Shown here: positions 18,214 through 41,735 of the stretch, one piece after another
How positions within the stretch are numbered: the stretch's first letter is position 1
How the letters are laid out: each line of letters begins with the position of its first letter
NCBI GenBank assembly: GCA_019721035.1
Contig: JAHEAA010000006.1
Location: 1 to 64,000 of the forward strand
Source of the DNA: Candidatus Sysuiplasma acidicola
Lineage (GTDB): Archaea; Thermoplasmatota; Thermoplasmata; Sysuiplasmatales; Sysuiplasmataceae
Length of the DNA stretch: 64,000 nucleotides
Reading direction: 5' to 3'
Notes under the pieces: generated by a model
Databases searched by the model: none
The model's input: only the letters and a program-made list of their open reading frames with translations
What the model was told of the DNA's origin: nothing
Program-made: the position numbers and the translations under genes

Positions 18214-18322
18214 GATGCATGGATTGAAACCAATAGGCCTCATCTCTTAGAAAATTACAGCGCTAATATGAGGGTGTTTGTCGTCGACAAATTGAGATAA
18301 TATTAGAACCGCAGCCTATATT
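18214..18322. repeat. 109-bp direct repeat, left copy (tRNA-Glu 3' flank)
   Basis: Aligns without a gap to 41198-41306, about 82% identical (20 differences by eye). Each copy immediately precedes the identical 26-bp att core on the plus strand. It is thus a diverged duplicate of the sequence downstream of tRNA-Glu. Confidence 0.8.
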
Positions 18323-18348
18323 GGTATGCTCCCGTCGGGATTTGAACC
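18323..18348. repeat. Left attachment core (tRNA-Glu 3' fragment)
   Basis: 26 bp identical to 41307-41332. It contains the last 22 bases of tRNA-Glu (T loop, T stem and acceptor strand) but the rest of the tRNA is absent here. AACC at its inner end also forms a 14-bp palindrome AACCTATATAGGTT (18345-18358). Confidence 0.88.
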
Positions 18349-18410: not shown

Positions 18411-19679
18411 ATGGAACCTAAGTATAACGTTCTACTCGAAAACAAGGAATTCAGGAGATGGTATGAGAATGTGGCGAGGGGGCATGAGAGTACTGCGCGC
18501 AATTATCTCCGCTGCCTGGGCAAACTGTGCGGCCTGGTAGGTCGTTCACCGCAGGAAATTATCAAAATGTCCCAGAGGGAAAGGGACGACATGATCCTCG
18601 ATTACATTGCCGACAGGGAAAAGAACGGCATAACCGGTGCCTCGATCAAGGTGGAGATAAAGGCATTGAAATCATGGTTGCGGTGGAATGATAAGCGCAT
18701 AAACAAACCTATCAGGATAAAGCACGCTGGCTGGACAACCACACTTTCCAACGAGTCTATACCGAGCCAGGATGAACTGAAAACCATATTTAATGCGGCA
18801 TCTCCCCAGCAGAGAACTGCAATTGCTCTGGTCGCATTCAGCGGCCTGAGGCTGGAAGTCCTGGGAAACTACAACGGAACAGACGGTCTGAGGGTCGACG
18901 ATTTGGAAGGAGTCCGAATCGACGGGGAAACAGTGACTTTCAGCCGGGTGCCCGCCATGATAAGAGTAAGGACCGAACTGAGCAAGACCGGAAACTCGTA
19001 TTTCACATTCATCGGGCCTGAGGGATGCGACTATATCAGGGCATACCTTGAAAGTAGACTCAGGGCAGGAGAAGAGCTGGGAGATAAATCGCCGTTAGTT
19101 GCACCGGTGAGGAGAAGTGTAAAGTTCATCACCACAATAAACATCGGTGACATCATTCGTAGACCGATGAGGCTCGCAGGCAACGAGCAAAGGCCCTATG
19201 TCTTCCGCTCATATTTCGCGACGAGATCAATGCAGGCTGAAGGGGCCGGTCTGTTGAGAGACTGGCGTGTCTTCATGATGGGTCACAAGGGTGACATAGA
19301 ACACACGTACACGATGAACAAGGGACGGTTGAAAGAGGATCTCATAGAACAGATGAGGGAAGGATACAAAGCCGCTCTTCCGTTTCTGGAGACCTCCAAA
19401 CAGACAGCGCCAATGTCCAACTCCGACTTCTTGAAAAGAATGATTTCTGTCCTGAATCCAAAGGGCGAAGTTTCGAAAGCAGATCAGGCGGAATTAACCA
19501 GACTGATAAGGGAAAAACTGGAGAAAGAACAGAATGAGAACAACGTCACCGATTCCGTCAAGTCACGGTCGGTTCAGCGGGTTGTTCAAATCTCAGAGCT
19601 GGATAATTATCTCCGTGGAGGATATGAGTTCGTTCATGAATTGCCAGACAGCAGAATTATCGTAAGGCATTCTGACTGA
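18411..19679 (+). CDS. int: Tyrosine integrase of the element
   Basis: 422 aa. The N-terminal SAM-like core-binding domain (residues 10-100) is followed by the catalytic domain (120-320). Catalytic residues seen: Arg in FSGLRLEVLG, the Y-x-x-R box YVFRSYF (Tyr replacing the usual first His), GHKGDIEHTY with His and the nucleophile Tyr. The last 100 residues are charged and coiled-coil-like. The TATA-like TTAAATATAAAT (18364-18375) lies 36-47 nt before the ATG and overlaps the left arm repeat, so integrase binding could repress its own promoter. Confidence 0.9.
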   Translation: MEPKYNVLLENKEFRRWYENVARGHESTARNYLRCLGKLCGLVGRSPQEIIKMSQRERDDMILDYIADREKNGITGASIKVEIKALKSWLRWNDKRINKPIRIKHAGWTTTLSNESIPSQDELKTIFNAASPQQRTAIALVAFSGLRLEVLGNYNGTDGLRVDDLEGVRIDGETVTFSRVPAMIRVRTELSKTGNSYFTFIGPEGCDYIRAYLESRLRAGEELGDKSPLVAPVRRSVKFITTINIGDIIRRPMRLAGNEQRPYVFRSYFATRSMQAEGAGLLRDWRVFMMGHKGDIEHTYTMNKGRLKEDLIEQMREGYKAALPFLETSKQTAPMSNSDFLKRMISVLNPKGEVSKADQAELTRLIREKLEKEQNENNVTDSVKSRSVQRVVQISELDNYLRGGYEFVHELPDSRIIVRHSD

Positions 19680-24710: not shown

Positions 24711-24787
24711 TCGCATTCAATTCCAGTAAAACAACTCTGTCCTACTTTCTTCCTTCTCAGTGACTCTGGTGTTGTCGCAAAACCTCT

Positions 24788-25470
24788 CTAATTCACTCTC
24801 CAGGGAGGCTTACCGAATTTCTTGATGACAAACCCGTTCTTGTTGATGTTCAGTAGCTAATTCCCTTTCAGCGTCGGCAGAATCTCGGCCAAATCATCGA
24901 AGTCACTTTCCTTGAAGTTGTGACGGTAGAACTTCTTGCCGAAATAGGGCGTGTCGAGGTAGAAGAAAGCATCTTCGATTTCGTACCTCTTCATCAGGTC
25001 TCTGAAGTCGAGATGCTAGATTGTCCAGCTCTGAATCTCTCTGCTGACCTCTTCAACTCTTGCAACCGCATCAAGTACCTTGAGCGAGATGGACCTTCTG
25101 TTTCCCACCAGATATCCGAAAGTCCAGCCCTTGCCTGCAAACGAACTGTAGAACACGAAGAATGTTGTGAACACATCATCCACAGGTTCTCCAGTTTCAG
25201 GTGTGTGGACATATTTCTCAAACAGCTCCCTCGAATACACGAACGTTTCGAACCTTTGCCTGAACTCATATGGGCACTCCCTGATTACGTTTAACAGGTT
25301 GACGAGTCTCAAGTCGATGTCGTTGTAAACATTGTTCCTGGCATCCACATCGAACAGGAACTTGTCTGAGCCCCCAAAGGCGTTTATCGCGACAGGTTTT
25401 CCCGACCTCTAGAATGTCTCCTTTATCTCACCCATCAGGTAAAATTTGCCGCCGCCGTTGACACTGTAGA
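24788..25470 (-). pseudogene. D12-class (Dam-like) adenine methyltransferase with four in-frame TAG codons
   Basis: About 225 codons read in one frame with no frameshift. The N-terminal GGGKFYLMGEIKETF and INAFGGSDKFLF match the D12 motif I region, DIDLRLVNLLNVIRE and TFVYSRELFEKY the middle, and HLDFRDLMKRYE then FFYLDTPYFG motif IV (DPPY changed to DTPY). TAG codons interrupt at 25409-25411, 25016-25018, 24857-24859 and 24788-24790; no TAA or TGA occurs in this span. No start codon is evident at the 5' end. It is judged decayed. Confidence 0.75.
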
Positions 25471-25595
25471 CAGTGACAAGTTATATGCACGGTTCCAGAG
25501 TGCCATGGATGTCGTCTCCAGGCACCGTACAGGTCTGGCAAGTGAGTAGAGATGTGAAGTGGTTTGAGTGATGCTTGGATGGAAAGCACAAGCCT

Positions 25596-25805
25596 TCAGA
25601 GCAGCCCCATTTCCTTTTTGAGTGTGTTGGCCCTGTCCTCTGCTATGTGCGATATAACGAAGTTGAACTTTTCTTCCATCTGTGTAGTCAACGTTTCCCT
25701 GTCTTTTGTCGACTTCACGGTTTCCCTGAATATCGAATAATCCAGGTTGAACTGGTCTTTCCTGCCCGTCACATATTCCTTCACAAATGCGTTGCCCTTC
25801 GCCAT
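25596..25805 (-). CDS. Small hypothetical protein upstream of the methylase remnant
   Basis: 69 aa from ATG 25805. Helical and charged, possibly coiled-coil. No family recognised. It may be a leftover of the restriction locus. Confidence 0.35.
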   Translation of the reverse strand: MAKGNAFVKEYVTGRKDQFNLDYSIFRETVKSTKDRETLTTQMEEKFNFVISHIAEDRANTLKKEMGLL

Positions 25806-26125
25806 TTCATTCACTTCTTTTCTTGTTTTCCACGCGGGTTTCAGGCCAGAACAGTGTCGCTCATTCGGATGAGGCCGAAAGATGTATTATGTATAGCCGC
25901 ACAGTGTCACGTCTTAAATCAGTGTTCTCTGATACCGTGTGCAATGGAAATCAACGATTTCAGAGAAAATTTCGTGTCAGACTTCCTGAACGAGAAAGTC
26001 AAACCGGTTTCTGATGAAAACTGAACCGATAGACTCTGCCATGCACAGACTTACTTTAATAACCGAGAAGAAATTTCACAATACATGGGGATGAGCGTCC
26101 CGTCTGCCGGAGCGAGGTAACTTTG
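25806..26125. other. Intergenic, no gene seen
   Basis: No frame of coding character on either strand. A TTTAATAA box at 26054-26061, some 65-72 nt before the type IIG start, is the only promoter-like element noticed. Confidence 0.35.
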
Positions 26126-26680
26126 ATGCTGACACCTAGAGAGGTAGAGCAGAATGCCATAAGATTCTCTACAGAATGGAAAGATGAGAGTCGAGAGAAA
26201 GCCGAAGCCCATAGCTTCTGGGATGCTTTTTTTGACGTCTTTGGATTGTCTAGACGGCGACTAGCTTCCTTTGAGGAACCTGCTAAAAAATTTGATGGTC
26301 GGCGTGGGTCAATCGACTTATTTTGGAAGGGTAAACTCCTTGTAGAACATAAGTCCAAAGGAGAGAATCTCGATGCTGCTTACACACAGGGATTGGATTA
26401 CTTCGCCGGAATTTCGGAGGAGGATTTACCAAAGTATGTCTTGGTTTCTGACTTTGCGCGTTTTCGTCTCTATGACTTAGAGGAACATGACTCCAAACCA
26501 GACGAGTTTCCCTTGGAGAAGTTCCATGAGAATCTCCATCTATTCAACTTCATTCTTGGCTGGGAAACGCGCAAGGTAGTTGATGAGGCTCCAGTGAATA
26601 TCCGGGCGGCGGAGCTAATGGGTCAGCTTCACGATGCTCTGAAGGCGTCAGGATACACCGGCCATCCGCTAGTGCCCTGA
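26126..26680 (+). pseudogene. Type IIG restriction-modification protein, 5' part (nuclease domain), cut by IS630-type element
   Basis: From ATG 26126 the frame encodes the N-terminal domain, with RRGSIDLFWKGKLLVEHKSKG carrying the D-x(n)-E-x-K nuclease core typical of MmeI/BREX-PglX-like single-chain enzymes. At codon 183 (CCG CTA) an IS has inserted at TA, so the frame runs three codons into the IS and stops. Joining 26671 to 27880 restores a 930-residue frame. A nuclease-only fragment could still be made. Confidence 0.85.
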
Positions 26681-27877
26681 TTCGATAACGAACTTCTGTA
26701 TTTTTGACCGAAACGCTTGAATCCTTGATTGCACATACACTGGTGCATGACACTGCACGTCAGAACCTTGCACAACGAGGAAGGAAAGAAGCTGTCCAGG
26801 ACTGCCAGGAAAACAAACAATGCGATAACGCTCAGGAGAGCGCAGGTGATACTGCACTCTGCCCAGGGCTTCACCCCGCCGAAGATCGCGGATATGCTCG
26901 GGCTGTCTGTTGAATGGACAAGGCACATCATTCATGAATTCAATGAGAATGGTTTCGACTCGCTGAAGCCGCTGCCCAACAAGGGCGGCACCGGCAGGCC
27001 GAGGAAGTTTGTGGATGAGATAAGACTCGAGATGGTGAACATGGCGCTGACGCCGCCATCATCACTGGGCTATCCATTCACCACATGGTCCCTGAGGAAG
27101 CTCAGGGACGCAATAGTGGAGAAGGGGATTGTTGCAGACATCAGTGTCTCCAACCTTCAGAAGATACTGAAGGACGAGGAGCTGACATACCAGGCTGTGA
27201 AGACATGGAAGGAGAGCGATGACCCTGACTTCGAGAAGAAGAAGCGGCGGATAGACAGGCTCACCCGCAGGAAACACAATCCGCCGGTGGTCATTTCATT
27301 CGATGAAGTGGGGCCACTGCAGCTCAAGCCAGTGGGCGGCGGCCACTGGCAGGTCAGCGGCCACCCGGACAGGGTGCCGGCGACATACAGCAGGAAGGAG
27401 GGTACAAGGCAGCTGCTGCTCGCATTCAACTACTACCATGGCACGTTCTTCGGAAGGATCAGGAAAAGGAAAACGGCGAAGAACATACTCTCTTTCTTCA
27501 GGGAGCTCCGCCGCCATTACCCGGCGGAGCAGCGCATTCACATCATAATGGACAACCTGTCTGCGCATGGAACAGAGGATATAGTGAAATGGACGAAGAA
27601 GAACAGAGTCTCCTTTGCGCCTACGCCGACAAACGCGTCATGGCTCAATCCGGTCGAATGTCACATCGGTGACATTCAGCGTCTGGCATTGAAGGATACA
27701 GATTACAGGAAATGGCCGGAAGCAGATGCGGCACTCCAGAGTGCAATTCGATACAAGAATGCGCACAGGAAGGAGATGCTTGAAAACAGGGAAAGGCGGA
27801 AAAAGGACAGAAGAAAGGCGAGAAAGCGAGTCATCTGGAAATTCAGGACACAGAACTCAGTTATTGAAACAGGGCAC
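26672..27877 (+). mobile_element. IS630/Tc1-type insertion sequence (1206 bp)
   Basis: Terminal inverted repeats: GTGCCCTG(A/T)TTC at both ends, 24 of 30 positions matching. It is flanked by TA on both sides (26670-26671, 27878-27879), the usual IS630 target duplication. It carries one transposase gene. The stop codon of that gene (TAG) is completed by the flanking TA plus the next base, outside the element. Confidence 0.92.
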
Positions 27878-27880
27878 TAG
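26747..27880 (+). CDS. IS630-family transposase
   Basis: 377 aa from ATG 26747 (the frame is open to a TTG at 26729). An N-terminal paired HTH region includes ITLRRAQVILHSAQGFTPPK and MLGLSVEWTRHIIHEF. The DDE core follows: Asp in VISFDEVGP, Asp in IIMDNLSAH, Glu in NASWLNPVECHIGD. Basic C-terminus. The frame appears intact, so the element may be active. Confidence 0.92.
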   Translation: MTLHVRTLHNEEGKKLSRTARKTNNAITLRRAQVILHSAQGFTPPKIADMLGLSVEWTRHIIHEFNENGFDSLKPLPNKGGTGRPRKFVDEIRLEMVNMALTPPSSLGYPFTTWSLRKLRDAIVEKGIVADISVSNLQKILKDEELTYQAVKTWKESDDPDFEKKKRRIDRLTRRKHNPPVVISFDEVGPLQLKPVGGGHWQVSGHPDRVPATYSRKEGTRQLLLAFNYYHGTFFGRIRKRKTAKNILSFFRELRRHYPAEQRIHIIMDNLSAHGTEDIVKWTKKNRVSFAPTPTNASWLNPVECHIGDIQRLALKDTDYRKWPEADAALQSAIRYKNAHRKEMLENRERRKKDRRKARKRVIWKFRTQNSVIETGH

Positions 27881-30123
27881 AAGTATTCCTCGTCCGTGTC
27901 ATGTTCTGCATGTTTGCCGATGATACCGGCATCTTTCTACCAAGGGACCACTTTGCGTATTACATCGAGACCAAGACGAAGACCGATGGGTCAGACTTGG
28001 GCCTTCACCTCTCTCAGATTTTCCAGGTACTCAACACAGGGGAAGGGAGTCGACAAAATACCTTGGACGCAGAGTTGGCAAGATTCCCGTATGTCAACGG
28101 CAAGCTCTTCGAGGAGCAACTACCGTTTCCTTCATTCAATGTGTCAATGAGGGCACTACTACTCGAGTGCATCCACTTCAACTGGAGTGAAGTCTCACCA
28201 GCAATATTCGGCTCGTTGTTTCAGTCTGTAATGGATCCAGAGAAGAGAAGAGACCTTGGCGGCCACTACACCGCGGAGAGGAACATTCTCAAGGTGATTC
28301 ATCCACTATTCTTGGATTCTCTCAGAGCCGAGATGGAACGCTACTGGTCCAATGAAAGGAAGCTCAGAGACATCCTCGACAGAATCTCCCAGATGAGATT
28401 TCTTGACCCTGCATGCGGATGCGGCAACTTCTTGGCCATCACATACCGTGAGCTTCGTCAGGTCGAGTTAGAAATCAGGGTTCGACTCAGGGAACTCTCT
28501 GAGAAGCCCGGTCAGAAGGCACATCAGAGAGTGTTGGACGTGGAGATGGGCAACGAGATAGATGTCGATGCTTTCTATGGAATTGAAATCGAGGAGTTTC
28601 CAGCTCGGATTGCAGAAGTCGCTCTCTGGCTGGTTGACCACCAGATGAATGTGAAGCTTTCTGAGAAGCTTGGGGACTACTTTGTTCGACTTCCGTTAAA
28701 GAAATCTCCGACTATCAAGAATCTGAATGCCCTACGCCAAAACTGGAAGCTGATTCTACCACGGGACCAAGTCAGCTACGTCCTCGGAAACCCACCATAC
28801 GCCGGGAAGAAACGACGAAATGCAGAACAAACCGAGGATATGGGCATCGTGATGAAAGGCAAGGTGGAGAACTACGGAAACCTCGATTACGTAGCATGCT
28901 GGTATGTAAAGGCGCTCGAATACATCAAGGGTACATCTGCGCATGTGGCCTTTGTATCGACTCAGGCCATCATGCATGGAGAACAAGTTGGGTTGCTCTG
29001 GGCGTTCCTTCTCCGTCAAGGAGCCATAATTCACTTCGCCCACCGTCCTTTCACATGGACCAGCGAGGCGAAGGGCAAGGCAGCCGTAACTGTCATCATT
29101 ATTGGTTTTGCATCCTTTGACCAGCCTAGAAAACGATTGTTCGACTACTCAGATCCTAATGGTCAGCCTGTTGAAGCCATCGTTCGCAATATCAACCCCT
29201 ATCTCGTAGACCAGCCATCTTTCCTCCTGCCGAGCCGAAAACGGCCAATCTGTTCAGTGCCAGAGATTCACTTTGGCAGTATGCCTAACGATGGAGGCCA
29301 CTTTATTTTCACTGAGGCAGAGAAGCAAAGCTTCATTGCAGCAGACCCATTGTCAGAGCGATTCTTGCGCCCACTCATTAGCGCAAAGGAGTTTCTCCAC
29401 ATGGAGAATCGTTGGTGTCTCTGGCTCCAAGGGATTCCGCCGCAGGAGTTAAGAGACCGCAAGGGTGTTATGGAGCGTATCGAAGAAGTCAGGAAGTATC
29501 GGTTGCAGAGCAAACGCGCAAGCACTCGGCGTCTTGCAGCGACTCCTTATCTCTTTGGGGAGATTCGTCAGCCCTTTGAGGACTACATACTTATTCCCAG
29601 ACACTCCTCGGAAACGCGCCGCTACATCCCGTTGGCATTCTTCGAAAGTTCCAACATCGCGAGCGATTCGTGCCTTGTGATTCCAGGAGGAAGCCTGTAC
29701 CACTTCGGTGTGTTGATGTCCGCAATGCACATGGCTTGGGTGCATCAGGTCGCAGGTAGGTTGACCGAACGAATCAGATACTCGAATAAGGTGGTCTATA
29801 ACAATTTTCCGTGGCCAAAGTCCCCCGCCCCGACTCAGATTGCGGAAGTGGAGAAACTAGCCAAGGGCATACTAGAGGCTAGGGCGAAGTTTACGGGTGT
29901 TTCATTGGCAACCCTTTACGACCCTTTGGTGACTCCTCCTGAACTGGTAAAAGCGCATGAGAAGTTAGACAAAATGGTAGACAGATGCTACCGCCAGAAA
30001 CCCTTCAGGACTGATTTGAGTAGGCTACGGTTTCTGTTCATGTTGTATAGGGAGTACTGTCCAGGGGCAACAACGCTGGATGCGTACCCCTTTGAGGATG
30101 GGGATGTAGATGATACTTCCTGA
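27880..30123 (+). pseudogene. Type IIG restriction-modification protein, 3' part (methyltransferase and specificity domains)
   Basis: The frame continues directly from the 26126 gene. From ATG 27901 it gives 740 aa. Motif I is DPACGCGNFLAITYREL, motif IV VLGNPPYAGKK (N6-adenine type). The C-terminal 350 residues look like a target-recognition domain. Because an ATG lies 21 nt after the junction, a free methyltransferase half could be made from a new or IS-borne promoter. No stop or frameshift is seen in this half. Confidence 0.85.
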
Positions 30124-30439
30124 CTGTACGCTCTCAGGACGCGCTCTGACCCAAAGGTCCTTGAGTTGCACCCAAACCCCGCCTACCATGTGAGGGTTCG
30201 AATGTAAAACCTCATTGAAGTACGGTTGCAAATATCACCGTGTCAATTTAGTTTTGTCGAAAGCAACTGGTCCTCTTCTCTACTCTACACGTTGGCTAAC
30301 CGAAAGAACATTAACGTATTGAATCGCATCTATATTCAGATTGGAATCGAGTCTGGCACTTTTACCGAGCTTAATTGTCCCCTTGCAGGAGGATGAGCTT
30401 CTGATGGAATCTCAGTCCACATAATTTGTATGAGGCACG
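30124..30439. other. Intergenic, no gene seen
   Basis: Lies between convergent genes. No coding frame or tRNA noticed. Confidence 0.4.
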
Positions 30440-32080
30440 TCAGTTATCATCTTCAATTCCATTATAGTCAGCAAAAGCGGTATCAAACTCTTCATTGGTA
30501 TAAATCAGTCCAGCTAATCCAAGAATTATTGAGTCTGCCCGTTCCTGTAGAAACATATCATAATCATCAGTTTCAATACCGAATTTGGGCTCAAGCTCTA
30601 TGAAGTGACTCTTGAGTGCGCCACCAAGATTTGGGTTTTCCTCAAGAATCGGCTTCAAATAATCTTTCGGGCTGTTGTCCTGATAATGCAAATTCGAAGC
30701 GGCTGGTACCAGACATATGTTAGCAACACTGTTAGCATGATCCTCAGAAACGCCTTTCTTCTTAAGGTATGCCTTTGGGAAGAAATGATGATAGTGTCTG
30801 CTGTTGCTTCTTGCGAGATTGGAACTGTCAACACGAACGGGGGTGTTGTTTTCAAAACTCAAAGGGTGACTTGAGGCAAGAAAAGCGAGGATCATTTTGC
30901 AGAAAGCGTTGCTCAAGGATAGTTCCGTCCTGATGATTTTGTCGCTTGTAAAACTCACCCATCCTTCTGGCCATGAAAACAACGATTCCAAGTCTTTTTC
31001 ATCTTTAACCAGTTTATCAATATCCCTGATATCCTGTCCAAGTTTGCTTTCCGTTCCTGAGGAATATCTTTCAATGGCGGCAGAACGCCAAAAATACCGA
31101 TTCAATATGCGAGCTTGAGACGACTTGGGCTGCTTGAATTCATTGCGATAGAAGAAGTACGCGATCGGGACCACACAGGACTGATAAGGAAGTAGCCTTG
31201 TTGAAGGGATCCCCAGATGATCTCTCAGAAAATCTACAGCAAGATTCGTTGCGTTAACGATTTCTACCCAATATTCAGTGACATCGTCTCTGGTGATTGA
31301 AAGGATATGTTTGCGCGTGCACCCGCCTTTGACAATGGCACCAGCAATTTGCAGAACCACAGACGCAGCCAATTCATCGTATTGCGCTTTTCTAAGATTT
31401 GAAGACAATTCGTTGTACTTGTCGCGAAGATTGAAATTATCCATCCAAGTCTTGGCAACCATGAGGTCAAACAAGTCGAGTTCGGTCCCCGTGTTGTTTA
31501 TTCTGGTAAACATCTCGCAAACCACATCTAGTGGCTGGTCCTCAATCCTTATGACAGGAAATTTGTAGAGCCTGAAGGTCTCACGTAACTTGTCGAAGCG
31601 TTTCTGTCGTTCGTCGCTCAGACTCTTGGACACTTTTTGTGGTTCATCTCCTAGGAGGTCGCCAATGTCTACGAATCTTGTGGGGTCAGAGCTCTCTAGC
31701 TTGAATGTCTCATCTTCTCCAGAAGCATCTAAATCGCAAAACACCTGGTATTTCTTTGTGTTTATAACTGCACCTTTGATACAAGCGTACAAAGAAGTGA
31801 GTCTCTGCTGACCGTCTAGAATGTAATTGATCAACTGGTTGTCAGGCGACTCTTTCAGAGCAAGATCGCCGATATTTCTGTGCGCCTTCATTCTTTCTTG
31901 GGTTTGCCAAAATATGAAACTTCCGATGGGGAACCCTTTACTAATGCTATCCAGTAAGTAGAGCGTTTGCCCAATATCCCAGACAACTCGTCTTTGAAAA
32001 TCAGGTATTTTTATGGCTCCATTCCCAATTTCCATAATAAGCTCAGGATATTCCATATAATCGGGTTTAGGTTGACGCAT
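30440..32080 (-). CDS. DUF262/DUF1524 (GmrSD-like) protein
   Basis: 546 aa from ATG 32080; the longer frame to 32398 has no family resemblance. DUF262: IKIPDFQRRVVWD (residues 19-31) and ILDGQQRLTSLY, the nucleotide-using DGQQR signature. DUF1524: an HNH-like HYHHFFPKAYL and NSVANICLVPA. This is the architecture of GmrSD type IV restriction enzymes, which cut modified DNA. A single-chain form is common. It is divergent from the Cas4-like gene with 214 nt between them. Confidence 0.85.
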   Translation of the reverse strand: MRQPKPDYMEYPELIMEIGNGAIKIPDFQRRVVWDIGQTLYLLDSISKGFPIGSFIFWQTQERMKAHRNIGDLALKESPDNQLINYILDGQQRLTSLYACIKGAVINTKKYQVFCDLDASGEDETFKLESSDPTRFVDIGDLLGDEPQKVSKSLSDERQKRFDKLRETFRLYKFPVIRIEDQPLDVVCEMFTRINNTGTELDLFDLMVAKTWMDNFNLRDKYNELSSNLRKAQYDELAASVVLQIAGAIVKGGCTRKHILSITRDDVTEYWVEIVNATNLAVDFLRDHLGIPSTRLLPYQSCVVPIAYFFYRNEFKQPKSSQARILNRYFWRSAAIERYSSGTESKLGQDIRDIDKLVKDEKDLESLFSWPEGWVSFTSDKIIRTELSLSNAFCKMILAFLASSHPLSFENNTPVRVDSSNLARSNSRHYHHFFPKAYLKKKGVSEDHANSVANICLVPAASNLHYQDNSPKDYLKPILEENPNLGGALKSHFIELEPKFGIETDDYDMFLQERADSIILGLAGLIYTNEEFDTAFADYNGIEDDN

Positions 32081-32294
32081 GGCCCTGCAACATTTCCAAA
32101 AGATATCAAACTTACTAGAAATGTACAGACCTATAGATACTACTGTAGATTGCTTGCACGTTTTGAAACTTTCGGTTAGCCTCGTCACGCATTGGGATAT
32201 ACATATGTGGCAAGAAGTACGCTCATTACATTGTGCGGCTGTCGGCATCCCCTCCGAAAGGCGTAAATATCGAAAATGCGGAATATCTTGTCCT

Positions 32295-33173
32295 ATGCCT
32301 ACGCGGATGAAGGAGTCCACAGGAGAGATGAGTTCATACCTGGACATGCTCAGGTCATATGAACCAGAAAATGACTCCTCAAACCGTGTGTCGTTCAAAC
32401 GTATATTGTCCCTTTATCCTGCTGCTGAAGAGGCAATGTCGAAGAGCGGCATCAGTAATGTGCATCATACCCGTGTGTCAGATTTTTCTGGTATAGGATA
32501 CTGTGCTTACAAGTCTTGGCACTATGGTCGCCGCACACCGCAGATTAGGCCGCCTAGAATCGCAAAACTAGTTGCGACTGGTACCCACATGCATTCAGTT
32601 AGGGAGATGGAAATACTTCAAGAGTCGACAAAACGTCCGCAGGCAACAGCAGCTCAATTGAAGAATCCTAAGGTAGACATATTCGATATTCCCGAATTTC
32701 CTACAACATTCCTAGAAGGAGATGTGGTTTACCATGCGAAGGTTGACAGCGCATCAAGGATTTCTGGCGATCTACGCATAACCGAGTTGAAGACAGGGAA
32801 TTTTGTTGGAATGCCCGATCATTATTTGCAGATGTGGGCCTATTGCCTGGCAACTCCGTCAGGTCTATATTTAGCCACTAATCACAATTTCAGAGCCCAA
32901 GATATTCAGTGGCAGATTCGCAATCCAAGAGTAGGAAAGGGCATTGGACCATTCCCTTTCACTGAAAACATGCTGAAGCTGGTCAGAATGGGCATGTATT
33001 ACCATAACAATCTGTACAAGATGGGGCTGTCAGGAGTAACCAAAGTTCCTCTAGAAACAACAACGGTACCGACAGCGACGAAATGTAGTGCATGTGCATT
33101 TTCCCACTCTTGTATGTGGCGTGCCAGTAGCGAAGAAGATGAGGACGAAGCAATCCATGGGAGGGTAAATTGA
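32295..33173 (+). CDS. Cas4-like PD-(D/E)xK nuclease with Fe-S cysteines
   Basis: 292 aa from ATG 32295 (32307 and 32328 are alternatives); TAAATATC at 32264-32271 is a well-placed TATA box for a leaderless start, and upstream frame overlaps the divergent gene. The first Cys is in GIGYCAYKSW, His in GTHMHSVRE, the nuclease core is SGDLRITELKTGN (D...E-x-K), and the C-terminus has CSACAFSHSC. The four Cys layout is that of Cas4/RecB-type nucleases binding [4Fe-4S]. No cas1, cas2 or CRISPR repeats are near, so it is a solo element-borne Cas4-like protein. Confidence 0.75.
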   Translation: MPTRMKESTGEMSSYLDMLRSYEPENDSSNRVSFKRILSLYPAAEEAMSKSGISNVHHTRVSDFSGIGYCAYKSWHYGRRTPQIRPPRIAKLVATGTHMHSVREMEILQESTKRPQATAAQLKNPKVDIFDIPEFPTTFLEGDVVYHAKVDSASRISGDLRITELKTGNFVGMPDHYLQMWAYCLATPSGLYLATNHNFRAQDIQWQIRNPRVGKGIGPFPFTENMLKLVRMGMYYHNNLYKMGLSGVTKVPLETTTVPTATKCSACAFSHSCMWRASSEEDEDEAIHGRVN

Positions 33174-33613
33174 AGAGAGTAGTGGGTGGCGACTCCGGGG
33201 AGGGTAGGAAGATTTACTACGCACATGCTGTGTGTATATATGGAAGCGATGAAGAGAAGACTCAGAAAAAATCCATCAGAAAAATCTTCCCATCCGCTGT
33301 TATTGTGAACCCTGCAAGCTATCGTCGTAAATACAGCGAATGGCTGTGTGAGGATGATCGGCAGGATCGCATGGAATTTTTTTACAACATGATTGATAAG
33401 TGTGATAAATTAGTCTTCTGCCGCCTTCTTGGAGTGATAACCGCTGGTGTCGGAAAAGAGATCAATTATGCAATAGCAAACGGAAAACCTGTTTTTGAAT
33501 TGTCTGGGTCTACTTCCCGGAGGATGAGAACAAAAAAAGTTAAATTCGCCTCTCCGGAAGAAACAGTAAAGCTGTATGGTTACTGGAGACGAGCTAACAA
33601 GACATCGGACTAA
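33170..33613 (+). CDS. Nucleoside deoxyribosyltransferase-like (NDT superfamily) protein
   Basis: 147 aa from a TTG overlapping the Cas4-like stop by 4 nt, so they are coupled. KIYYAHAVCIYGS at the start, NPASY, and GVGKEINYAIANGKPVFEL resemble NDT/DUF4406-type Rossmann-like nucleotide-binding proteins. These can hydrolyse nucleoside bonds or bind signalling nucleotides. Together with the nuclease it may form a two-gene module. Confidence 0.55.
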   Translation: MKRVVGGDSGEGRKIYYAHAVCIYGSDEEKTQKKSIRKIFPSAVIVNPASYRRKYSEWLCEDDRQDRMEFFYNMIDKCDKLVFCRLLGVITAGVGKEINYAIANGKPVFELSGSTSRRMRTKKVKFASPEETVKLYGYWRRANKTSD

Positions 33614-33706
33614 GATTTCGCAGGATTTTGAACTTTGGATCAAATGCACAGTGTCATAGAATGTTGGATAATTTTGTAATTGTAGCATCCCTCAGCGGTA
33701 ATGCGG

Positions 33707-33958
33707 CTATTTGAGCAAATGCTCTATCGCCGATGTATTGCAGACACTTTTCAAATTTTCCAGTGGAATGTTCTTGATGAATCGCCTGACTGCTTCATCG
33801 AGTTTTCTGTTAGAATCGAAGTAATGGCTATTGAGCAGTTTTGCCCTCTCGTAATTCCACCTCTGATCCTGCGGATTGATGTCAAGCGAATATCTTGATA
33901 GATAGTCTAAAACAACACGTGGATGCTTAACGTTTTTCCATACAATTTTGTTAAGGAG
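33707..33958 (-). pseudogene. Coding-like fragment without a start codon
   Basis: 84 codons on the minus strand (NKIVWKNVKHPRVVLDYLSR through SNRKLDEAVRRF to IEHLLK). An in-frame TAG lies at 33959-33961 and no ATG, GTG or TTG follows in frame. Looks like the tail of a larger protein. Family not recognised. Confidence 0.4.
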
Positions 33959-34002
33959 CTATAAAAAGAAGCGTACGATATATATTCATTTGTCACAAAG
34001 AT

Positions 34003-34113
34003 TCAGAAACTCACTTTCTGCACTAACCGCATTTGAATTTCATGGGCGTTGACAAGGTAATAGCCCATTGTCGTCAGCATGCTTGAATGACCTGTCTTTG
34101 CAGAGATTTTCAG
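34003..34113 (-). pseudogene. Tyrosine recombinase C-terminal fragment
   Basis: The last about 36 residues (ISAKTGHSSMLTTMGYYLVN) closely match the C-terminus of the recombinase at 39533-40123 (ISARLGHSNVLTTMRYYLV), with the His and nucleophile Tyr. The rest of the gene is missing upstream. A relic of a second copy. Confidence 0.6.
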
Positions 34114-34203
34114 TATCGCTAAGCAAGTAAAGGCACCTTTGAACCAATTTGGTCCGCGGAAATATCTTTTTATCCGCACAGCAAATAGGGTCACAAGATA
34201 ACA

Positions 34204-34599
34204 ATGCCAAGGAAGCCACAGTATGATGACGATTTGATAGACAAGGCTTATCAAATTTTGAAAGACACCACCAAAGAAACCCCAAAGAAAGCGAGAGAAT
34301 TGCAACGCATGCTTGGACTCGATGATGCTGATGGCAGACCAAACACCCGTGGCTTGATAACGGATGTAATTCGGAAGAAAAAATTGCCATTAGCGGCGTC
34401 CTCCCACGGTTATTATGTTATCCGTGATGCAGACCAACTTAAAGAAAACAACAAACAGTTGGACAGGAGGAAAATAGGGATAGAGAATCGGAAAGTTCTC
34501 ATAAACAGTGTGTTTCTGCTAAACCATCCTGAGAGTCTGGAAGACTCTCGCTTCGAAGACTCCGAATACTTTGATGAAGAAGACGAGGAAAACGAATAG
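34204..34599 (+). CDS. Hypothetical winged-helix-like protein, acidic tail
   Basis: 131 aa. The N-terminal half (LIDKAYQILKDTTKETPKKA, then RGLITDVIRKKKLPLAASSHGYYVI) has the helix-helix-wing look of a small DNA-binding protein. The C-terminus is very acidic. Convergent with the methylase gene. It might be the regulator of a restriction locus; no proof. Confidence 0.5.
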   Translation: MPRKPQYDDDLIDKAYQILKDTTKETPKKARELQRMLGLDDADGRPNTRGLITDVIRKKKLPLAASSHGYYVIRDADQLKENNKQLDRRKIGIENRKVLINSVFLLNHPESLEDSRFEDSEYFDEEDEENE

Positions 34600-34716
34600 T
34601 GTAATTTGCTCATCACCGCCATCTTCGTTCGAAGTGTTTGAGGAAGACCGAACGATTTCAAATCTACTGCAAACATTCGACAGAGAGGCGCGTCTTCATA
34701 AACAGAACGAAACCAC

Positions 34717-35643
34717 TTAAACACGGAGAACTGAGATTCTTGGCTGTCCCGAATAGGTCTCCAGTTCAGCGGTCAATACGTTCTCTTCAATGACCTTTTC
34801 GAAAGGCTTTCCAGATCTGGTGGCAAACCCGAGTTCGATTCCAATGGAATTCCTACCTAAGGATGCGGCCGCGCGCATTGTTGTTCCGCTCCCGACGAAA
34901 GGATCCAACACTGTTTCTCCTGGAAAGCTAAACATTCTGATTAGGCGGTTTGGCAGTGTCTCAGGGAAAGCACTTGGATTTTCGCCGGCCTTGGTCCCGG
35001 GGAAAGTCCAAACGCCTTGAGTGAATTCCCTCCATTCAGCAAGACTCAATTTGCTAGCATCTCTGAATGGTCTTTCCGGCCTTGGTGGTGTTCCTTCCTT
35101 TCTGAAAATCGCAATGAACTCATTCTCGAAGCAGGGATATACATTCCGGGGATATGGATAACTGCCCATTACGTTGGCGCCTCCAGAAGTCTTTGTTGTA
35201 GATATCTTCCGCCAGATAATGGTGCCGAGGAAGTCCATGCGCATACGTTTGTCATTCATAATGCTGTTAATGACATATGAATGCAGGGGTATGATCTGAT
35301 AGGCCTTGTGCTTAGTAGCGCGCAAATACTGGTCGCCGATGTCTATTATCATTCTGCACCCTGGGCACAATGCATCGTAACATTTTCTCCACACCGACAG
35401 GAGTGAATCGATGTATTCCGCCAAGTCTTGATTGAAACCAATCTGGCCTGGAATCCCGTAGTCCCTAATGGTCCAATAAGGAGGAGATGTAACAACAAGA
35501 TGTACATTCCCAATGGATTCCATACTCACTCTTCTCGCATCACCCACGATGAGTTTGTGGCTGGTGGGAATAATCAATTGTTTTTCATTTTGAAACTCCA
35601 CCTTGCTCTGAGATGTGAGTTCATAATCAACGCTGCTTTGCAT
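34717..35643 (-). CDS. DNA methyltransferase, beta-class N4-cytosine type
   Basis: 308 aa. Motif IV TSPPYWTIRDYG near residue 53 comes before motif I LDPFVGSGTTMRAA near residue 250, the beta-class order; SPPY suggests N4-cytosine rather than adenine. Ends with IGIEL. A matching restriction enzyme is not identified. An IS5-like element sits only 44 nt upstream of the ATG and may have separated the gene from its promoter. Confidence 0.85.
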   Translation of the reverse strand: MQSSVDYELTSQSKVEFQNEKQLIIPTSHKLIVGDARRVSMESIGNVHLVVTSPPYWTIRDYGIPGQIGFNQDLAEYIDSLLSVWRKCYDALCPGCRMIIDIGDQYLRATKHKAYQIIPLHSYVINSIMNDKRMRMDFLGTIIWRKISTTKTSGGANVMGSYPYPRNVYPCFENEFIAIFRKEGTPPRPERPFRDASKLSLAEWREFTQGVWTFPGTKAGENPSAFPETLPNRLIRMFSFPGETVLDPFVGSGTTMRAAASLGRNSIGIELGFATRSGKPFEKVIEENVLTAELETYSGQPRISVLRV

Positions 35644-35686
35644 GATACTGAATTGATTTCTAGTATCTAGATTTTGTGGTCTGGAG

Positions 35687-36780
35687 GGGTGTGCCCATAA
35701 ATTATTGTATTCTCATCACTGCCATCGCGTCCCACACGATCAGCCTGAGCATGAGCTCAACACGCTGATTCCTCGTCTTCCTTGAATATATCATCTCTCC
35801 GAAACGCATCTTGATTGCTGCAATTATGCCCTCTATGACAGAACGCTTGCTGTACTTCCGCTTGTATGGACCGGGATGGTCAAGTGCTGTCCTGACCATC
35901 CGGTGCCATTCAGGCACTGCAGCAGCCCTCGCCGTCGTGTTGCACTTCAGCTTGATGACAGGCAGTCCGCCATGGTCGGATATGCTCTGCACGGCATATC
36001 TGGAGAGATAGCCTGGATCCAGACAGACATCGCCGATGACGATTGCATCGTCGACGACGTCGAGGAGTGTGTCGAGCATCTTTATGTCTGCCACCGTGCC
36101 TTTTGTCACACTCGCAGACAACACGATGGCAGGCCATATGGATATGCAAAGATGGAGCTTGACGAACTGCCTCTTCCTCTTCTTACCTGCCTTCCTGGAC
36201 ACGAACCAGCACAGGTAGCGCTTTGTGCCGAAGCCGGTGCCGTCACCGGCAATATTCAGCCTGCGGCACTTTCTGAGCACAACTGTTATGGAGTGCAGCA
36301 GTGACTGCAGAAAGTTCTCCGATATTCTCGAGCAGTACTTCTGTGCCGTATTGTAGTGCGGCACAGTCGTCATGCCGGCGAGCATGACAACGGTGCTGTC
36401 AGCAGCCAGCAGCGAATATGTGCCTCTGTATGAGTCGCAGAACAGTGTCTTCAGCACGAGGAACATCACAATATCAGACGGTGGCGCCGGCGGCCTTCCC
36501 CTGCCGCCACTCCTCACCCTGTAAGGCGCCCTCCTGCTTCTCACCTCGGCACCAACAGTTGTTATGACCTCTTCTTTTTCATGCTTCCGGCACTCATTGT
36601 ACACTTTCCAGTTCCTGCTTCGCCTTGTCGTTCACATCCCATCCCGCCGACAACGGTACGGGCATCAAAAGTCAGATAAACAACGGATATGCATATTATC
36701 CCGCGGAGATGCGCCATCCTGTTGTCGTTGCAAACAAAAGGTATGGCATCTCCTCAATTTCATATTTTGTGGGCACACCC
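35687..36780. mobile_element. IS5-like insertion sequence (1094 bp) with 9-bp target duplication
   Basis: Perfect 11-bp terminal inverted repeats GGGTGTGCCCA at both ends, with weaker pairing beyond. The flanks GGTCTGGAG (35678-35686 and 36781-36789) are identical, a 9-bp target duplication. One transposase gene on the minus strand. Confidence 0.9.
35702..36604 (-). CDS. DDE transposase, IS5-like
   Basis: 300 aa. DDE residues: Asp in NIAGDGTGFG, Asp in VCLDPGYLS, Glu in KRSVIEGIIAAIK (the R/S-x3-E-x6-K pattern). The basic N-terminus includes RSGGRGRPPAPPSD. Frame intact and target duplication perfect, so insertion is recent. Confidence 0.88.
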   Translation of the reverse strand: MYNECRKHEKEEVITTVGAEVRSRRAPYRVRSGGRGRPPAPPSDIVMFLVLKTLFCDSYRGTYSLLAADSTVVMLAGMTTVPHYNTAQKYCSRISENFLQSLLHSITVVLRKCRRLNIAGDGTGFGTKRYLCWFVSRKAGKKRKRQFVKLHLCISIWPAIVLSASVTKGTVADIKMLDTLLDVVDDAIVIGDVCLDPGYLSRYAVQSISDHGGLPVIKLKCNTTARAAAVPEWHRMVRTALDHPGPYKRKYSKRSVIEGIIAAIKMRFGEMIYSRKTRNQRVELMLRLIVWDAMAVMRIQ

Positions 36781-36831
36781 GGTCTGGAGGGTTCTGTAAA
36801 GATTGATTATGCACTCTGCAATACTCCTTCG

Positions 36832-37185
36832 ATGCAAGCTCGGGCGAAAAATCACCAATATGATGTGAGGCGTCTGTTATCAGAGGCTGGGCGGAAAGAT
36901 TTGATCGAAATTCTGGTAGATGCTGAGCGGAAAATCAACAAGGTAGCAATGCGGGAACTGCGCCCACTAAAGCTCCAGATTGATCCACTGCTCTACTTGG
37001 CTTTCCATTCAAAAAAGGTTCTGTCTATCCTATATTCATTAACAACGTTATGTCCATCTGGAGATGGCGCCAGCATTCGACCGTTATTGATAAGAAATAT
37101 TGATGGAGATTATGTACTTTGCATGGTGTGTGAAAGCCATGGTTTTCATCGATTCTGCTCAGAAAAGCCTCTTAAACTCCATTGA
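36832..37185 (+). pseudogene. Possible interrupted gene right of the IS5-like element
   Basis: 117 codons from ATG 36832 in a frame that is open back into the IS. A second overlapping frame (37100-37385 region, with DSAQKSLLNSIDFETHEEIL and KAFAPACPEVLAIGVF) looks like its continuation after a frameshift near 37130. No family recognised. It may be the remains of a gene hit by the IS. Confidence 0.3.
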
Positions 37186-37385
37186 CTTTGAAACACATGA
37201 AGAAATTTTGTCAACAAACAAATCTTATCGTGATAGGAATGTGGCAACCATACGTGAATCGCATCCTTCACATCCGGGCATTAAAGCATTCGCTCCTGCA
37301 TGCCCCGAGGTTCTGGCTATCGGTGTTTTTGCGACCAATCCAATCAGACCCTGTGGATGGACGCCGTGGCCTTTCGTTCCCATGT

Positions 37386-38594
37386 CTAATCGGGTGGATT
37401 TCTCAGTGCATTCTTCACTGAACTTATTTCGTCTTTTAGCGTTCCTCTTTGAATAATCTTCTCCAGTTCCTTTTTCTCCACGTGAGAGTAAATCTCCCGA
37501 GAAGTCTCTGTCAATTTCACTGCTTCATAGTCCTTGACGTAGTTGGAATAAGTAGAGGTCGCAGCATCGGCTGAGAATGAATTCTCGCTTATCCAGTTCT
37601 GAATTCTCGCAAGAGCGTCTTTGTAGTTCCTCTTGGCGTAGCCGAGTTCTTCTCTGTAATATATCCGCGGCTGAGGATTTGGCGCCCCTGGCTTGTTGTT
37701 TATTCTCATCTTCGGGAATGTGTATCTGGGCCCGAAGGAACTGAACCTGTAGAAGTGCTGCAGTACATTCTTCGCAGTGGCTATCTCGCCGGCGCTCCTG
37801 TTCATCTTGGATTTCGCAGAATCGTACCCATAAAGGATAAACGCTTCGCCTTGTCGTTGCGTGACGCTTGAAATATCCTTAGAATATAGCAAACTATTGA
37901 TCTGAGGTAACACGGTAAGCTGCTCCTGTCCGTGGCCATCAGATATCACAATAGGTGTGTTGAAATCCTTGTAAACAGATGCGAACTCTGATACCTTGGC
38001 ATGAGGAAGGTTACACGGAACTGTCATAGCTAAGACATTTCCGATGTTTGAAGAGGTAGTGCTCTTCAAGAACCTTTTCATGAAATTAAGATAGTCGCCA
38101 AAAGGCAGAGGGGTCGTCTTGTATACTCTTGTCAGTTGCCGGCTTGTTGCCCCGACAATTCTAGTAAAAGTCTTAGTTTCATAATAGTATACTACAGGAG
38201 GAACAGGTATGGTATAGAGAGAATATAAGTCAATTAGCGCTCGCAGGTATTCAATATCCTGATTTTCAATTTTGTCTGTTGTTTTAACCAAGAGGTTGAT
38301 TATGTTCAACGAAAAATTATCATATCGCCCAATCCGAAGTTCCCTCTTAATGAATTCCCTCTGGGCGTCGGCGTCATTGTCGATTTTTCTCAACTTGTCC
38401 AGCGTGATATTCACTGAGTTTTCAAATATGGCTTCATTTCCCAGCAAATCCAAGGTCCTCCGCTTCACCTTAGAAGGGTTCACTGCAGGATGGACCTCGA
38501 AATGACTACCTGATTTGAGTCTTAGCTCAGTCTTTCTCAAATGTAGTCCATCTTCACGGTACTCCTCTACAAGTCCTACGTCCACCTTTGCCAC
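37386..38594 (-). CDS. Hypothetical element-encoded protein
   Basis: 402 aa from GTG 38594. Soluble, mixed alpha/beta. It has a strand-rich middle (VLAMTVPCNLPHAKVSEF, then PIVISDGHGQEQL) that could be a TIM-barrel- or Rossmann-like core, and a helical charged C-terminus. I do not recognise a family. It is next to the Panacea-like gene on the same strand. Confidence 0.6.
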   Translation of the reverse strand: MAKVDVGLVEEYREDGLHLRKTELRLKSGSHFEVHPAVNPSKVKRRTLDLLGNEAIFENSVNITLDKLRKIDNDADAQREFIKRELRIGRYDNFSLNIINLLVKTTDKIENQDIEYLRALIDLYSLYTIPVPPVVYYYETKTFTRIVGATSRQLTRVYKTTPLPFGDYLNFMKRFLKSTTSSNIGNVLAMTVPCNLPHAKVSEFASVYKDFNTPIVISDGHGQEQLTVLPQINSLLYSKDISSVTQRQGEAFILYGYDSAKSKMNRSAGEIATAKNVLQHFYRFSSFGPRYTFPKMRINNKPGAPNPQPRIYYREELGYAKRNYKDALARIQNWISENSFSADAATSTYSNYVKDYEAVKLTETSREIYSHVEKKELEKIIQRGTLKDEISSVKNALRNPPD

Positions 38595-38624
38595 TTTAAC
38601 TTTCCTCCTGATATCGCAAATTAA

Positions 38625-38780
38625 TCATTCCTCCCTCTCTGCGGCCCTCACAACATGAATATCTTTGCCGTCGTAATGGTAGAACACAGGTTTAATGGAG
38701 AGCATTTTCCTTTTTGGCCTGCATTTCTGGAGTTCACCTATGTTGCCCAGGTCGATATTGACCTCAACTGCCGAATTACT
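38625..38780 (-). CDS. Small ORF with no standard start
   Basis: A coding-looking frame (AVEVNIDLGNIGELQKC, then IKPVFYHYDGKDIHVVRA) lies between the two larger minus-strand genes. It has no ATG, GTG or TTG until ATG 38705, which leaves 26 codons. An ATG in the adjacent frame 8 codons upstream hints at a 1-base frameshift. Possibly broken. Confidence 0.25.
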   Translation of the reverse strand, partial: SNSAVEVNIDLGNIGELQKCRPKRKMLSIKPVFYHYDGKDIHVVRAAEREE

Positions 38781-38802
38781 CGTTCATACCGCCTGCCCGC
38801 AC

Positions 38803-39375: not shown

Positions 39376-39532
39376 CCTTCCCTCCTTTGCAGCATATCAA
39401 TAACTTCATATTTGAATACACCCCAGTTACAACTTTCTTCGTCAAATGAAGTGAGGAGTCGTCTGGGTTGCAAAAACGAAGCTGTGTTCAAATCCATCCT
39501 TCTGCTCACTATCTCTTTTCCCTACTTTTGCA

Positions 39533-40123
39533 CTATATCCTGCCTGCTACTAATTGCCTCTGGACCTCCGGCGTGATCACCAGGTAGTAACGCATGGTCG
39601 TCAGAACGTTCGAGTGTCCCAGCCTCGCCGATATTATCGGGATGGGTACATTGTTTTTCAGCAGGTGTATGGCCAGCCCGTGCCGGAACATGTGCGGATG
39701 CACATCGATTCCGGTTTCCTTCCCGTACGTTCTCACAATTTTCCACGCCTGCACCTTGGAAAAGTCACAAAGTTTACCCCCGACAGCGTAATTCCTGAGA
39801 TAGTTGCTGATCTCGAGCAGGAGACTATCGTCGAGCGGTATGGTGTTCACGTTCTTTCGCTTCTTCACGCTGAGATTGAGAACCTTCCTATCGAAGTCAA
39901 AATTCTCAGGCACGATGTTAAGGATGTCACCTATCCTGCCTCCCGTCTCCCACATCAGGCTGAGGAGCAACTTATCCCTGTCTCTTAAATAGCGCTCTTT
40001 CTTCGCCCACTGCCCCGCCGATGAGTATTTCCTGGCGACTGCATCCAGAAGCCTGAGATACTGCTCCCTCGTTATGTGCGGCGGGAGCTTGTCATACTCC
40101 TTCAGCATGAGTGCTCTCTGCAC
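39533..40123 (-). CDS. Tyrosine recombinase, catalytic domain only
   Basis: 196 aa. Catalytic residues: Arg in ETGGRIGD, His-x-x-Arg in HMFRHG, His in LGHSN, Tyr in MRYYLV. The N-terminal core-binding domain is absent (XerA-type proteins are about 290 aa). Possibly an excisionase helper, a resolvase, or a relic. Start at 40123 or ATG 40108. Confidence 0.8.
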   Translation of the reverse strand: MQRALMLKEYDKLPPHITREQYLRLLDAVARKYSSAGQWAKKERYLRDRDKLLLSLMWETGGRIGDILNIVPENFDFDRKVLNLSVKKRKNVNTIPLDDSLLLEISNYLRNYAVGGKLCDFSKVQAWKIVRTYGKETGIDVHPHMFRHGLAIHLLKNNVPIPIISARLGHSNVLTTMRYYLVITPEVQRQLVAGRI

Positions 40124-40163
40124 AAAAGATTAACTCTAATAGGAACCTTCAACTTGCCTATAC

Positions 40164-40634: not shown

Positions 40635-40708
40635 TTGTAATATGGAATTAAAAGGTTGTTATTGTGTCTGAAAGATTAACCCGCAATCTTGCCAGAAAAC
40701 CACTGGGG

Positions 40709-40897: not shown

Positions 40898-40965
40898 GAT
40901 GCTGAATCCAACTGCTCCAAATAAATTCGGCTTGGTGTAGTATCAATCTTGAAAGTTCCAGAATT

Positions 40966-41184: not shown

Positions 41185-41197
41185 CGCACCCTTCCCG

Positions 41198-41306
41198 GAT
41201 GCATGAATTGAAATCCATTGGCATCATCCCTTTGCAAATTACAGCGTTAATATGTGATTGTTTGTTGTCGACAAATCAAGATAATATTTAAACCACAACC
41301 TATATG
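41198..41306. repeat. 109-bp direct repeat, right copy (tRNA-Glu 3' flank)
   Basis: Partner of 18214-18322, no gaps, about 82% identity. It lies inside the element, directly after the tRNA 3' end. Confidence 0.8.
41284..41305. repeat. Inner arm, right (inverted copy of 18350-18371)
   Basis: The reverse complement matches the left arm at 20 of 22 positions. It adjoins the right core. Confidence 0.65.
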
Positions 41307-41332
41307 GGTATGCTCCCGTCGGGATTTGAACC
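41307..41332. repeat. Right attachment core within tRNA-Glu
   Basis: 26 bp identical to 18323-18348, spanning the acceptor, T stem and T loop of the intact tRNA. Confidence 0.88.
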
Positions 41333-41383
41333 CGAGTCCCAAACTCGAGAGGCTTGGATGATTGGCCACTACACTACGGGAGC
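41311..41383 (-). tRNA. tRNA-Glu(CTC)
   Basis: 73 nt, no intron. Acceptor GCTCCCG pairs with CGGGAGC, discriminator A. Anticodon stem CAAGC/GTTTG (one G-T pair), loop CTCTCGA giving CTC. T arm TCGGG/CCCGA with loop TTCAAAT. The 3' half is supplied by the integrated element's core. Confidence 0.93.
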
Positions 41384-41735
41384 AGTTGGTGAGGAAATGC
41401 GAATGTCACTGCCGATTTAAACCTTCTTGTATCACCTGCTCATGCAGATCATAATATCAGTGTGGACACACCAAGCGCTTCTTAGTTTTTCGCCAACGAG
41501 GTGATTTCAAGAGCTGCAGTGCGGCGCTTTCATGGGCATCGTGCATTTGGAACAGGGCAGTACTCAACTCAGGTTTACGTATGGCTCTTCTGCAGTGCTC
41601 CGATCAGTCGTCGGGTGCTTCGTATCAAAAACGGGCCGATCCAGAAGAATGCCGCAGTCTATGACTTGCGATATAGTTACTGTGTCCGGGACAGAATCGT
41701 CAAGATTAAAATAATGCCACGGAATAACATGACTT
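41384..41735. other. Intergenic, no gene seen
   Basis: Upstream of tRNA-Glu and of the Phi_1-like gene. Short open frames overlap in all phases but none looks coding. Confidence 0.35.

What the first reader, a model, noticed from the sequence alone, without database searches (positions are those of the whole stretch)
26126..30123. Type IIG restriction-modification gene split cleanly by an IS630-type element; excision would restore it
The insertion is at TA in a CTA codon. Removing the 1206-bp IS and one TA gives an uninterrupted 930-codon frame with nuclease, methylase and recognition regions all intact and no other mutation seen. This looks recent and reversible, like a phase switch. The 3' half could still act as a free methylase from ATG 27901.
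Basis: seen in the sequence. Interest (0 to 1): 0.65.

Follow-up and report, generated by a model that had tools for sequence, protein, structure and literature searches.

The report
Archaeal MmeI-type restriction gene with IS630
A single mobile element has recently jumped into a DNA-cutting defence gene of an uncultured archaeon and most likely switched it off; this is an ordinary kind of event, and nothing found here shows that it works as a reversible switch.

Summary
An MmeI-family (Type IIL, a IIG subtype) gene, 26126-26671 plus 27880-30123, is split by a 1206-bp IS630-family element (26672-27877) at TA in CTAG, with the TA duplicated. Leaving out the IS and one TA gives 929 residues plus a stop, without secondary stops, that align end to end with over 60 homologues. 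Absence of stops bounds neutral divergence since inactivation to about 2.5-3%, so the insertion looks recent. The neighbouring D12 methylase (24717-25454) has four in-frame stops.

"Reversible, like a phase switch" is not supported. No empty-site allele was found. Three congeners lack the gene, so the insertion cannot be tested as fixed or polymorphic. By the ISY100 model, excision leaves a 4-bp footprint that keeps the gene broken (stop at codon 197). No Ku gene was found.

The free-methylase idea is possible but weak: ATG 27901 matches MmeI residue 194, 38 residues inside the helical spacer.

The gene is cargo of a ~23-kb integrative element in tRNA-Glu. The same slot holds unrelated R-M systems in two congeners. 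Most likely: ordinary IS inactivation of exchangeable R-M cargo.

The parts
26126..26671 (+). 5' part of the MmeI-family gene: PD-(D/E)XK nuclease domain (MmeI_N) and start of the helical spacer, 182 codons; the frame reads on into the IS and stops at TGA 26678-26680
   Evidence: Pfam PF20464 E 1.9e-42; D64-X9-E74-X-K76; ORF 26126-26680
26670..26671 (.). left copy of the duplicated TA target, in CTAG 26669-26672
26672..27877 (+). IS630-family insertion sequence, 1206 bp, 28-bp imperfect terminal inverted repeats beginning GTGCCCTG
   Evidence: NCBIfam transpos_IS630 184.6 bits against a cut-off of 100
26729..27880 (+). IS630 transposase, 383 aa from TTG 26729 (or 377 aa from ATG 26747); DDE acidic residues present; stop TAG made of the target TA plus host G
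27878..27879 (.). right copy of the duplicated TA target
27880..30123 (+). 3' part of the MmeI-family gene: rest of helical spacer, N6-adenine methylase, target recognition domain and C-terminal bundle; separate ORF of 740 aa from ATG 27901
   Evidence: Pfam PF20473, PF20466, PF20467, PF20465; aligns to MmeI (PDB 5hr4) residues 194-901, E 1.5e-218
24717..25454 (-). pseudogene of a D12-class N6-adenine methylase, four in-frame stops plus a frame break; intact 290-aa copies in two congeners
18214..18348 (.). left att-like repeat of the host element: 135 bp, 85% identical to 41198-41332, ending in the tRNA-Glu 3' end
18411..19679 (+). probable tyrosine recombinase/integrase of the element, 422 aa
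   Evidence: PHROG 1 integrase E 4.4e-14; XerA_Arch model E 5.5e-10, below its cut-off
39533..40123 (-). second tyrosine recombinase, 196 aa, conserved in G001
   Evidence: PF00589 E 1.4e-24; 81% DNA identity to G001
41198..41332 (.). right att-like repeat of the host element
41310..41384 (-). tRNA-Glu(CTC), inferred integration site of the ~23-kb element

Best explanation
An IS630-family element transposed by cut and paste into a CTAG site of a previously intact MmeI-type (Type IIL) restriction-modification gene, in the same orientation as the gene, and inactivated it. The event is recent in sequence terms, because the halves carry no further stop or frameshift. The broken gene is cargo of a ~23-kb integrative element in a tRNA-Glu gene whose R-M content differs between related archaea. 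Loss of one R-M module by IS insertion is therefore most simply one step of ordinary cargo turnover. Shown: anatomy, family, target duplication, intact joined frame, single full IS copy in the assembly, island context. Inferred: recency, loss of restriction, irreversibility in practice.
For: TA duplication in CTAG, inverted repeats and 1206-bp length. IS630 transposase with DDE residues. Five MmeI Pfam domains across two halves and an end-to-end alignment of the joined frame with homologues at 34-56% identity, the junction segment being ungapped in the close ones. Zero stops in 929 codons gives at most about 2.5-3.0% neutral divergence (95%), against four stops in the adjacent D12 methylase. 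Only one full IS copy in G000 plus a 72% remnant. MmeI gene absent from the three congeners, while the same slot in G001 holds an Mrr_cat endonuclease with an N6_N4 methylase and in G002 a 955-aa Eco57I-type protein. tRNA-Glu and 135-bp direct repeats. IS insertions into R-M and other defence genes are documented (PMC10359306).
Against: No expression or methylome data. Purifying selection on the 3' half, if it is translated, would also keep it free of stops and make the insertion older than it looks. The genome is a 95%-complete draft, so another IS copy or an empty-site copy could be missing. Cargo exchange rests on three genomes.
Confidence: 0.8

Rival explanations
1. Phase switch: the IS excises precisely often enough that a subpopulation regains the full enzyme, giving reversible restriction.
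For: Joined frame is intact; transposase looks intact; scarless IS excision restoring a gene is known for ISAba13 in Acinetobacter (PMC9038732, abstract), though from my own knowledge that is another IS family.
Against: ISY100, the biochemically studied IS630-family element, cuts exactly at the 3' ends and two bases inside the 5' ends, and rejoined donors carry TATATA, that is TA-NN-TA (PMC2170065); modelled here, +4 bp gives a stop at codon 197. No Ku in four congeneric genomes. No empty-site copy found. No regulated feature at the site.
Confidence: 0.05
2. Free methylase: the 3' half is translated from ATG 27901 as an orphan MmeI-type methylase, so the insertion turned an R-M enzyme into a methylation-only enzyme.
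For: 740-aa ORF with whole methylase, recognition and C-terminal domains; the MmeI crystal model lacks its disordered nuclease domain yet shows the other domains bound to DNA (PMC4833311); homologues that lack the nuclease domain occur, e.g. L098 and L099; zero stops fits selection too.
Against: ATG 27901 equals MmeI residue 194, inside the 156-300 spacer, whereas L098/L099 begin at about query residue 149-155 and keep the spacer. No Shine-Dalgarno-like sequence is evident before 27901 and expression would need readthrough from the IS. No positive evidence of expression.
Confidence: 0.12
3. Adaptive inactivation: loss of this enzyme was selected, for example to end self-restriction or to let foreign DNA in.
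For: IS insertion into CRISPR-cas genes has been selected experimentally and natural insertions into R-M genes are reported (PMC10359306); a second methylase in the same island is also dead.
Against: No selection evidence here; one insertion in one genome, at one of eight CTAG sites of the gene, needs no selection.
Confidence: 0.1

Closest known systems
MmeI, Type IIL (IIG) restriction-modification enzyme, PDB 5hr4, TCCRAC(20/18)
   Same: five domains in the same order, nuclease D-X9-E-X-K spacing, methylase motifs, alignment from spacer to C-terminus
   Different: gene is interrupted; recognition sequence unknown; archaeal host
IS630/Tc1/mariner family insertion sequences (IS630, ISY100)
   Same: one DDE transposase ORF, short inverted repeats, TA duplication, CTAG target as for IS630 (Tenzen & Ohtsubo 1991, cited in PMC2170065)
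   Different: archaeal element, closest (68-92%) to fragments in the same archaeal family and 40-48% identical to the rest of the class; its transposase stop codon is completed by the target site
IS insertions into defence genes (CRISPR-cas, R-M, Dnd)
   Same: an IS disrupts an R-M gene (PMC10359306)
   Different: those were IS1/IS10 in bacteria; here IS630 in an archaeon
IS-mediated reversible phase variation (ISAba13 scarless excision)
   Same: gene interrupted by one IS
   Different: no reversion evidence here; IS630 chemistry predicts a footprint

Membership tests
MmeI-like Type IIL R-M enzymes | N-terminal PD-(D/E)XK nuclease with D-X9-E-X-K | tested here: met
   PF20464 1.9e-42; D64, E74, K76; spacing of MmeI D70/E80/K82 from PMC4833311
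MmeI-like Type IIL R-M enzymes | helical spacer, gamma-class N6A methylase, TRD, C-terminal bundle in one chain | tested here: met
   PF20465, PF20473, PF20466, PF20467; 5hr4 match; one chain only if the IS is left out
MmeI-like Type IIL R-M enzymes | cuts about 20 bases from an asymmetric site and methylates one strand | not testable with these tools
   needs protein or methylome
IS630 family | transposase of the IS630 family with DDE triad | tested here: met
   NF033545 184.6 bits, cut-off 100; D, D, E in the motifs at residues 189, 272 and 305
IS630 family | TA target duplication and terminal inverted repeats | tested here: met
IS630 family | CTAG target preference (IS630 itself) | tested here: met
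   window site is CTAG; flanks of related copies: TAG at three of four right ends, CTA at the one left end
phase-variable (reversible) R-M locus | both ON and OFF states seen in one population or in close relatives | tested here: inconclusive
   only the OFF state seen; no close relative carries the gene
phase-variable (reversible) R-M locus | a mechanism that precisely restores the frame | not testable with these tools
   the +4 footprint predicted from ISY100 breaks the frame; actual excision could not be tested
tRNA-integrated mobile element | integrase, tRNA gene and direct repeat of the tRNA 3' end at the other boundary | tested here: met

The most novel reading that the evidence does not exclude
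The IS insertion converted a Type IIL R-M enzyme into a methylation-only enzyme that is still made from the 3' ORF, with rare precise excision giving back restriction: an IS-gated epigenetic switch in an archaeon.
Probability: 0.03. Interest if true: 0.6.

Novelty: new member of a known kind. Interest (0 to 1): 0.22.

Why it matters
It documents turnover of R-M modules in an integrative element of uncultured archaea: one slot holds three unrelated R-M systems in three related genomes, and in this one the MmeI-type module has recently been silenced by an IS. If reversion were ever shown it would be a new case of IS-controlled restriction, but that is not shown here.

Tried and rejected
Empty-site junction as an exact 21-base pattern in viral contigs: no match. 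MmeI-type relatives in phages and viral contigs: at most about 54% identity, no near copy. Signs of decay in the joined protein at conserved columns: not unusual for its divergence. G160 carries the closest class relative (61.5% over residues 612-927), but it looks short only because the frame runs to the end of a 6.8-kb contig, so it was not taken as a second broken copy. The partial second MmeI copy in L028 was not pursued. The IS transposase has no solved relative by sequence. The organism could not be named; it is archaeal by its 16S rRNA.

Full report
Check of the observation. An ATG at 26126, preceded by GGAGCGAGG, opens a frame that runs to a CTA codon at 26669-26671. There a 1206-bp element (26672-27877) begins with GTGCCCTG and ends with CAGGGCAC, flanked by TA on both sides. 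Its ends form a 28-bp imperfect inverted repeat with 24 matching bases, found independently as 31 bp at 84% including the CTAG flanks. Leaving out the element and one TA gives 929 residues and a stop without any other stop; out-of-frame joins give 28-31 stops. The statement '930 codons' is correct counting the stop.

What the gene is. The 5' part matches MmeI_N; the 3' part matches MmeI_hel, MmeI_Mtase, MmeI_TRD and MmeI_C, all above the curated cut-offs. PADLOC's best model is a Type IIG restriction enzyme-methyltransferase that both halves match in register, at 4-177 and 197-907 of 912. The only solved relative found is MmeI itself (5hr4, E 1.5e-218), the reference of the Type IIL subclass. 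The nuclease triad has the same spacing as MmeI D70-E80-K82. In a public genome collection 123 stretches encode relatives, the best being 55% identical in a Methanoregulaceae archaeon, and the joined frame aligns from about residue 2 to 908 with most of those that are not cut by contig ends. Around the junction the close homologues read like the query, GHPLEVFLVR-LFC-FADDTGIF, without a gap, so nothing was lost at the insertion point.

What the insertion is. The transposase is an IS630-family protein (NF033545, 184.6 bits against a cut-off of 100) with DDE residues. CTAG is the target reported for IS630 (Tenzen & Ohtsubo 1991, as cited in PMC2170065); it makes up 1.5% of the window's TA sites. 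Fragments of related elements in the same archaeal family show the same half sites, TAG after three of four right ends and CTA before the one left end. The transposase stop codon is TAG made of the target TA and the next host base, so translation ends because of the target. G000 has one full copy plus a 72% remnant at C9, and the copy is assembled inside a contig, so it is not a collapsed repeat. The nearest elements lie in family members; none of those is full-length in the assemblies.

How recent. With 365 of 8361 single changes giving a stop, zero stops in 929 codons means at most about 2.5-3.0% neutral divergence since inactivation (95%). This assumes that the 3' half is not under selection. 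Nearby on the left, a D12-class adenine methylase (24717-25454) is intact in two congeners but has four in-frame stops here, so decay within the same island can be seen and the MmeI gene has not had it.

Reversible? For ISY100, the family member studied in vitro, cleavage is exact at the 3' ends and two bases inside the 5' ends, and rejoined donors carry TATATA, that is TA-NN-TA (PMC2170065). Modelled on this gene, the +4 bp footprint stops the frame at codon 197. No Ku gene was found in this genome or its three congeners (of the control genomes only Bacillus subtilis rang), so end joining by that route is unlikely; homologous repair from a sister copy would restore the IS (established knowledge). 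Precise loss by slippage between the two CTAG copies is possible but is not a switch. No empty-site copy was found by exact pattern in viral contigs, and no near relative was found in phages, viral contigs or genomes.

Free methylase? The 740-aa ORF has whole catalytic, recognition and C-terminal domains. Its ATG corresponds to MmeI residue 194, while the spacer begins at 156. Nuclease-less homologues such as L098 and L099 begin at about query residue 149-155, before or at the start of the spacer. An enzyme from 27901 would thus be shorter than these. Translation would depend on readthrough or coupling from the transposase, which ends 20 bases upstream in another frame, and no ribosome-binding-like sequence is evident. 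I hold it possible at about 12%.

Where it sits. tRNA-Glu(CTC) lies at 41310-41384. A 135-bp direct repeat, 18214-18348 and 41198-41332, contains the tRNA's 3' end; a probable integrase ORF follows the left copy (18411-19679) and a second tyrosine recombinase lies near the right one. This delimits an integrative element of about 23 kb. Because the repeat extends about 112 bp beyond the tRNA part on the outer side of the left copy, an older element may lie to the left in tandem (inference). Between the D12 methylase and the second recombinase or its remnant, three related genomes carry different cargo: here MmeI with its IS630, a GmrSD_N protein and an N6_N4 methylase; in G001 an Mrr_cat endonuclease with an N6_N4 methylase; in G002 a 955-aa Eco57I-type protein. 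The host is an archaeon by its 16S rRNA.

Verdict. The best account is ordinary: a recent IS630 insertion inactivating one exchangeable R-M module of a tRNA-borne island. Insertion of IS elements into R-M genes is documented (PMC10359306). The reversible-switch reading stays a speculation that reads of the source sample could settle.

Noticed in passing
window 18214-41332: About 23-kb integrative element between a tRNA-Glu(CTC) gene and a partial tRNA repeat, with two tyrosine recombinases; the repeat extends beyond the tRNA fragment on the outer side, suggesting tandem elements.
   Followed up: partly
window 24717-41300; L138 (G001:C1); L142 (G002:C197): The same slot holds unrelated R-M systems in three congeneric archaeal genomes, next to a conserved D12 methylase and a tyrosine recombinase.
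   Followed up: partly
window 24717-25454 (-): D12-class adenine methylase pseudogene with four in-frame stops; intact 290-aa copies in G001 and G002.
   Followed up: yes
window 27878-27880: The IS630 transposase stop codon TAG is created by the CTAG target, so termination depends on the insertion site; related copies L140 and L146 have the same right junction.
   Followed up: partly
L139 about 4437-4640 (G001:C1): Two IS630-type ends about 200 bp apart, a possible MITE-like derivative of this IS family.
   Followed up: no
L028 2051-5391: Full MmeI-type gene followed at once by a second partial copy lacking the nuclease domain, in Candidatus Parabeggiatoa.
   Followed up: no
window 30440-36604: Further cargo: GmrSD_N-type protein (30440-32398 -), an N6_N4-type DNA methylase (34717-35643 -) with no evident endonuclease partner, and a DDE_Tnp_1 transposase (35702-36604 -).
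   Followed up: no
window 1-64000: CTAG is under-represented: 41 seen against about 71 expected from CTA and TAG counts.
   Followed up: no
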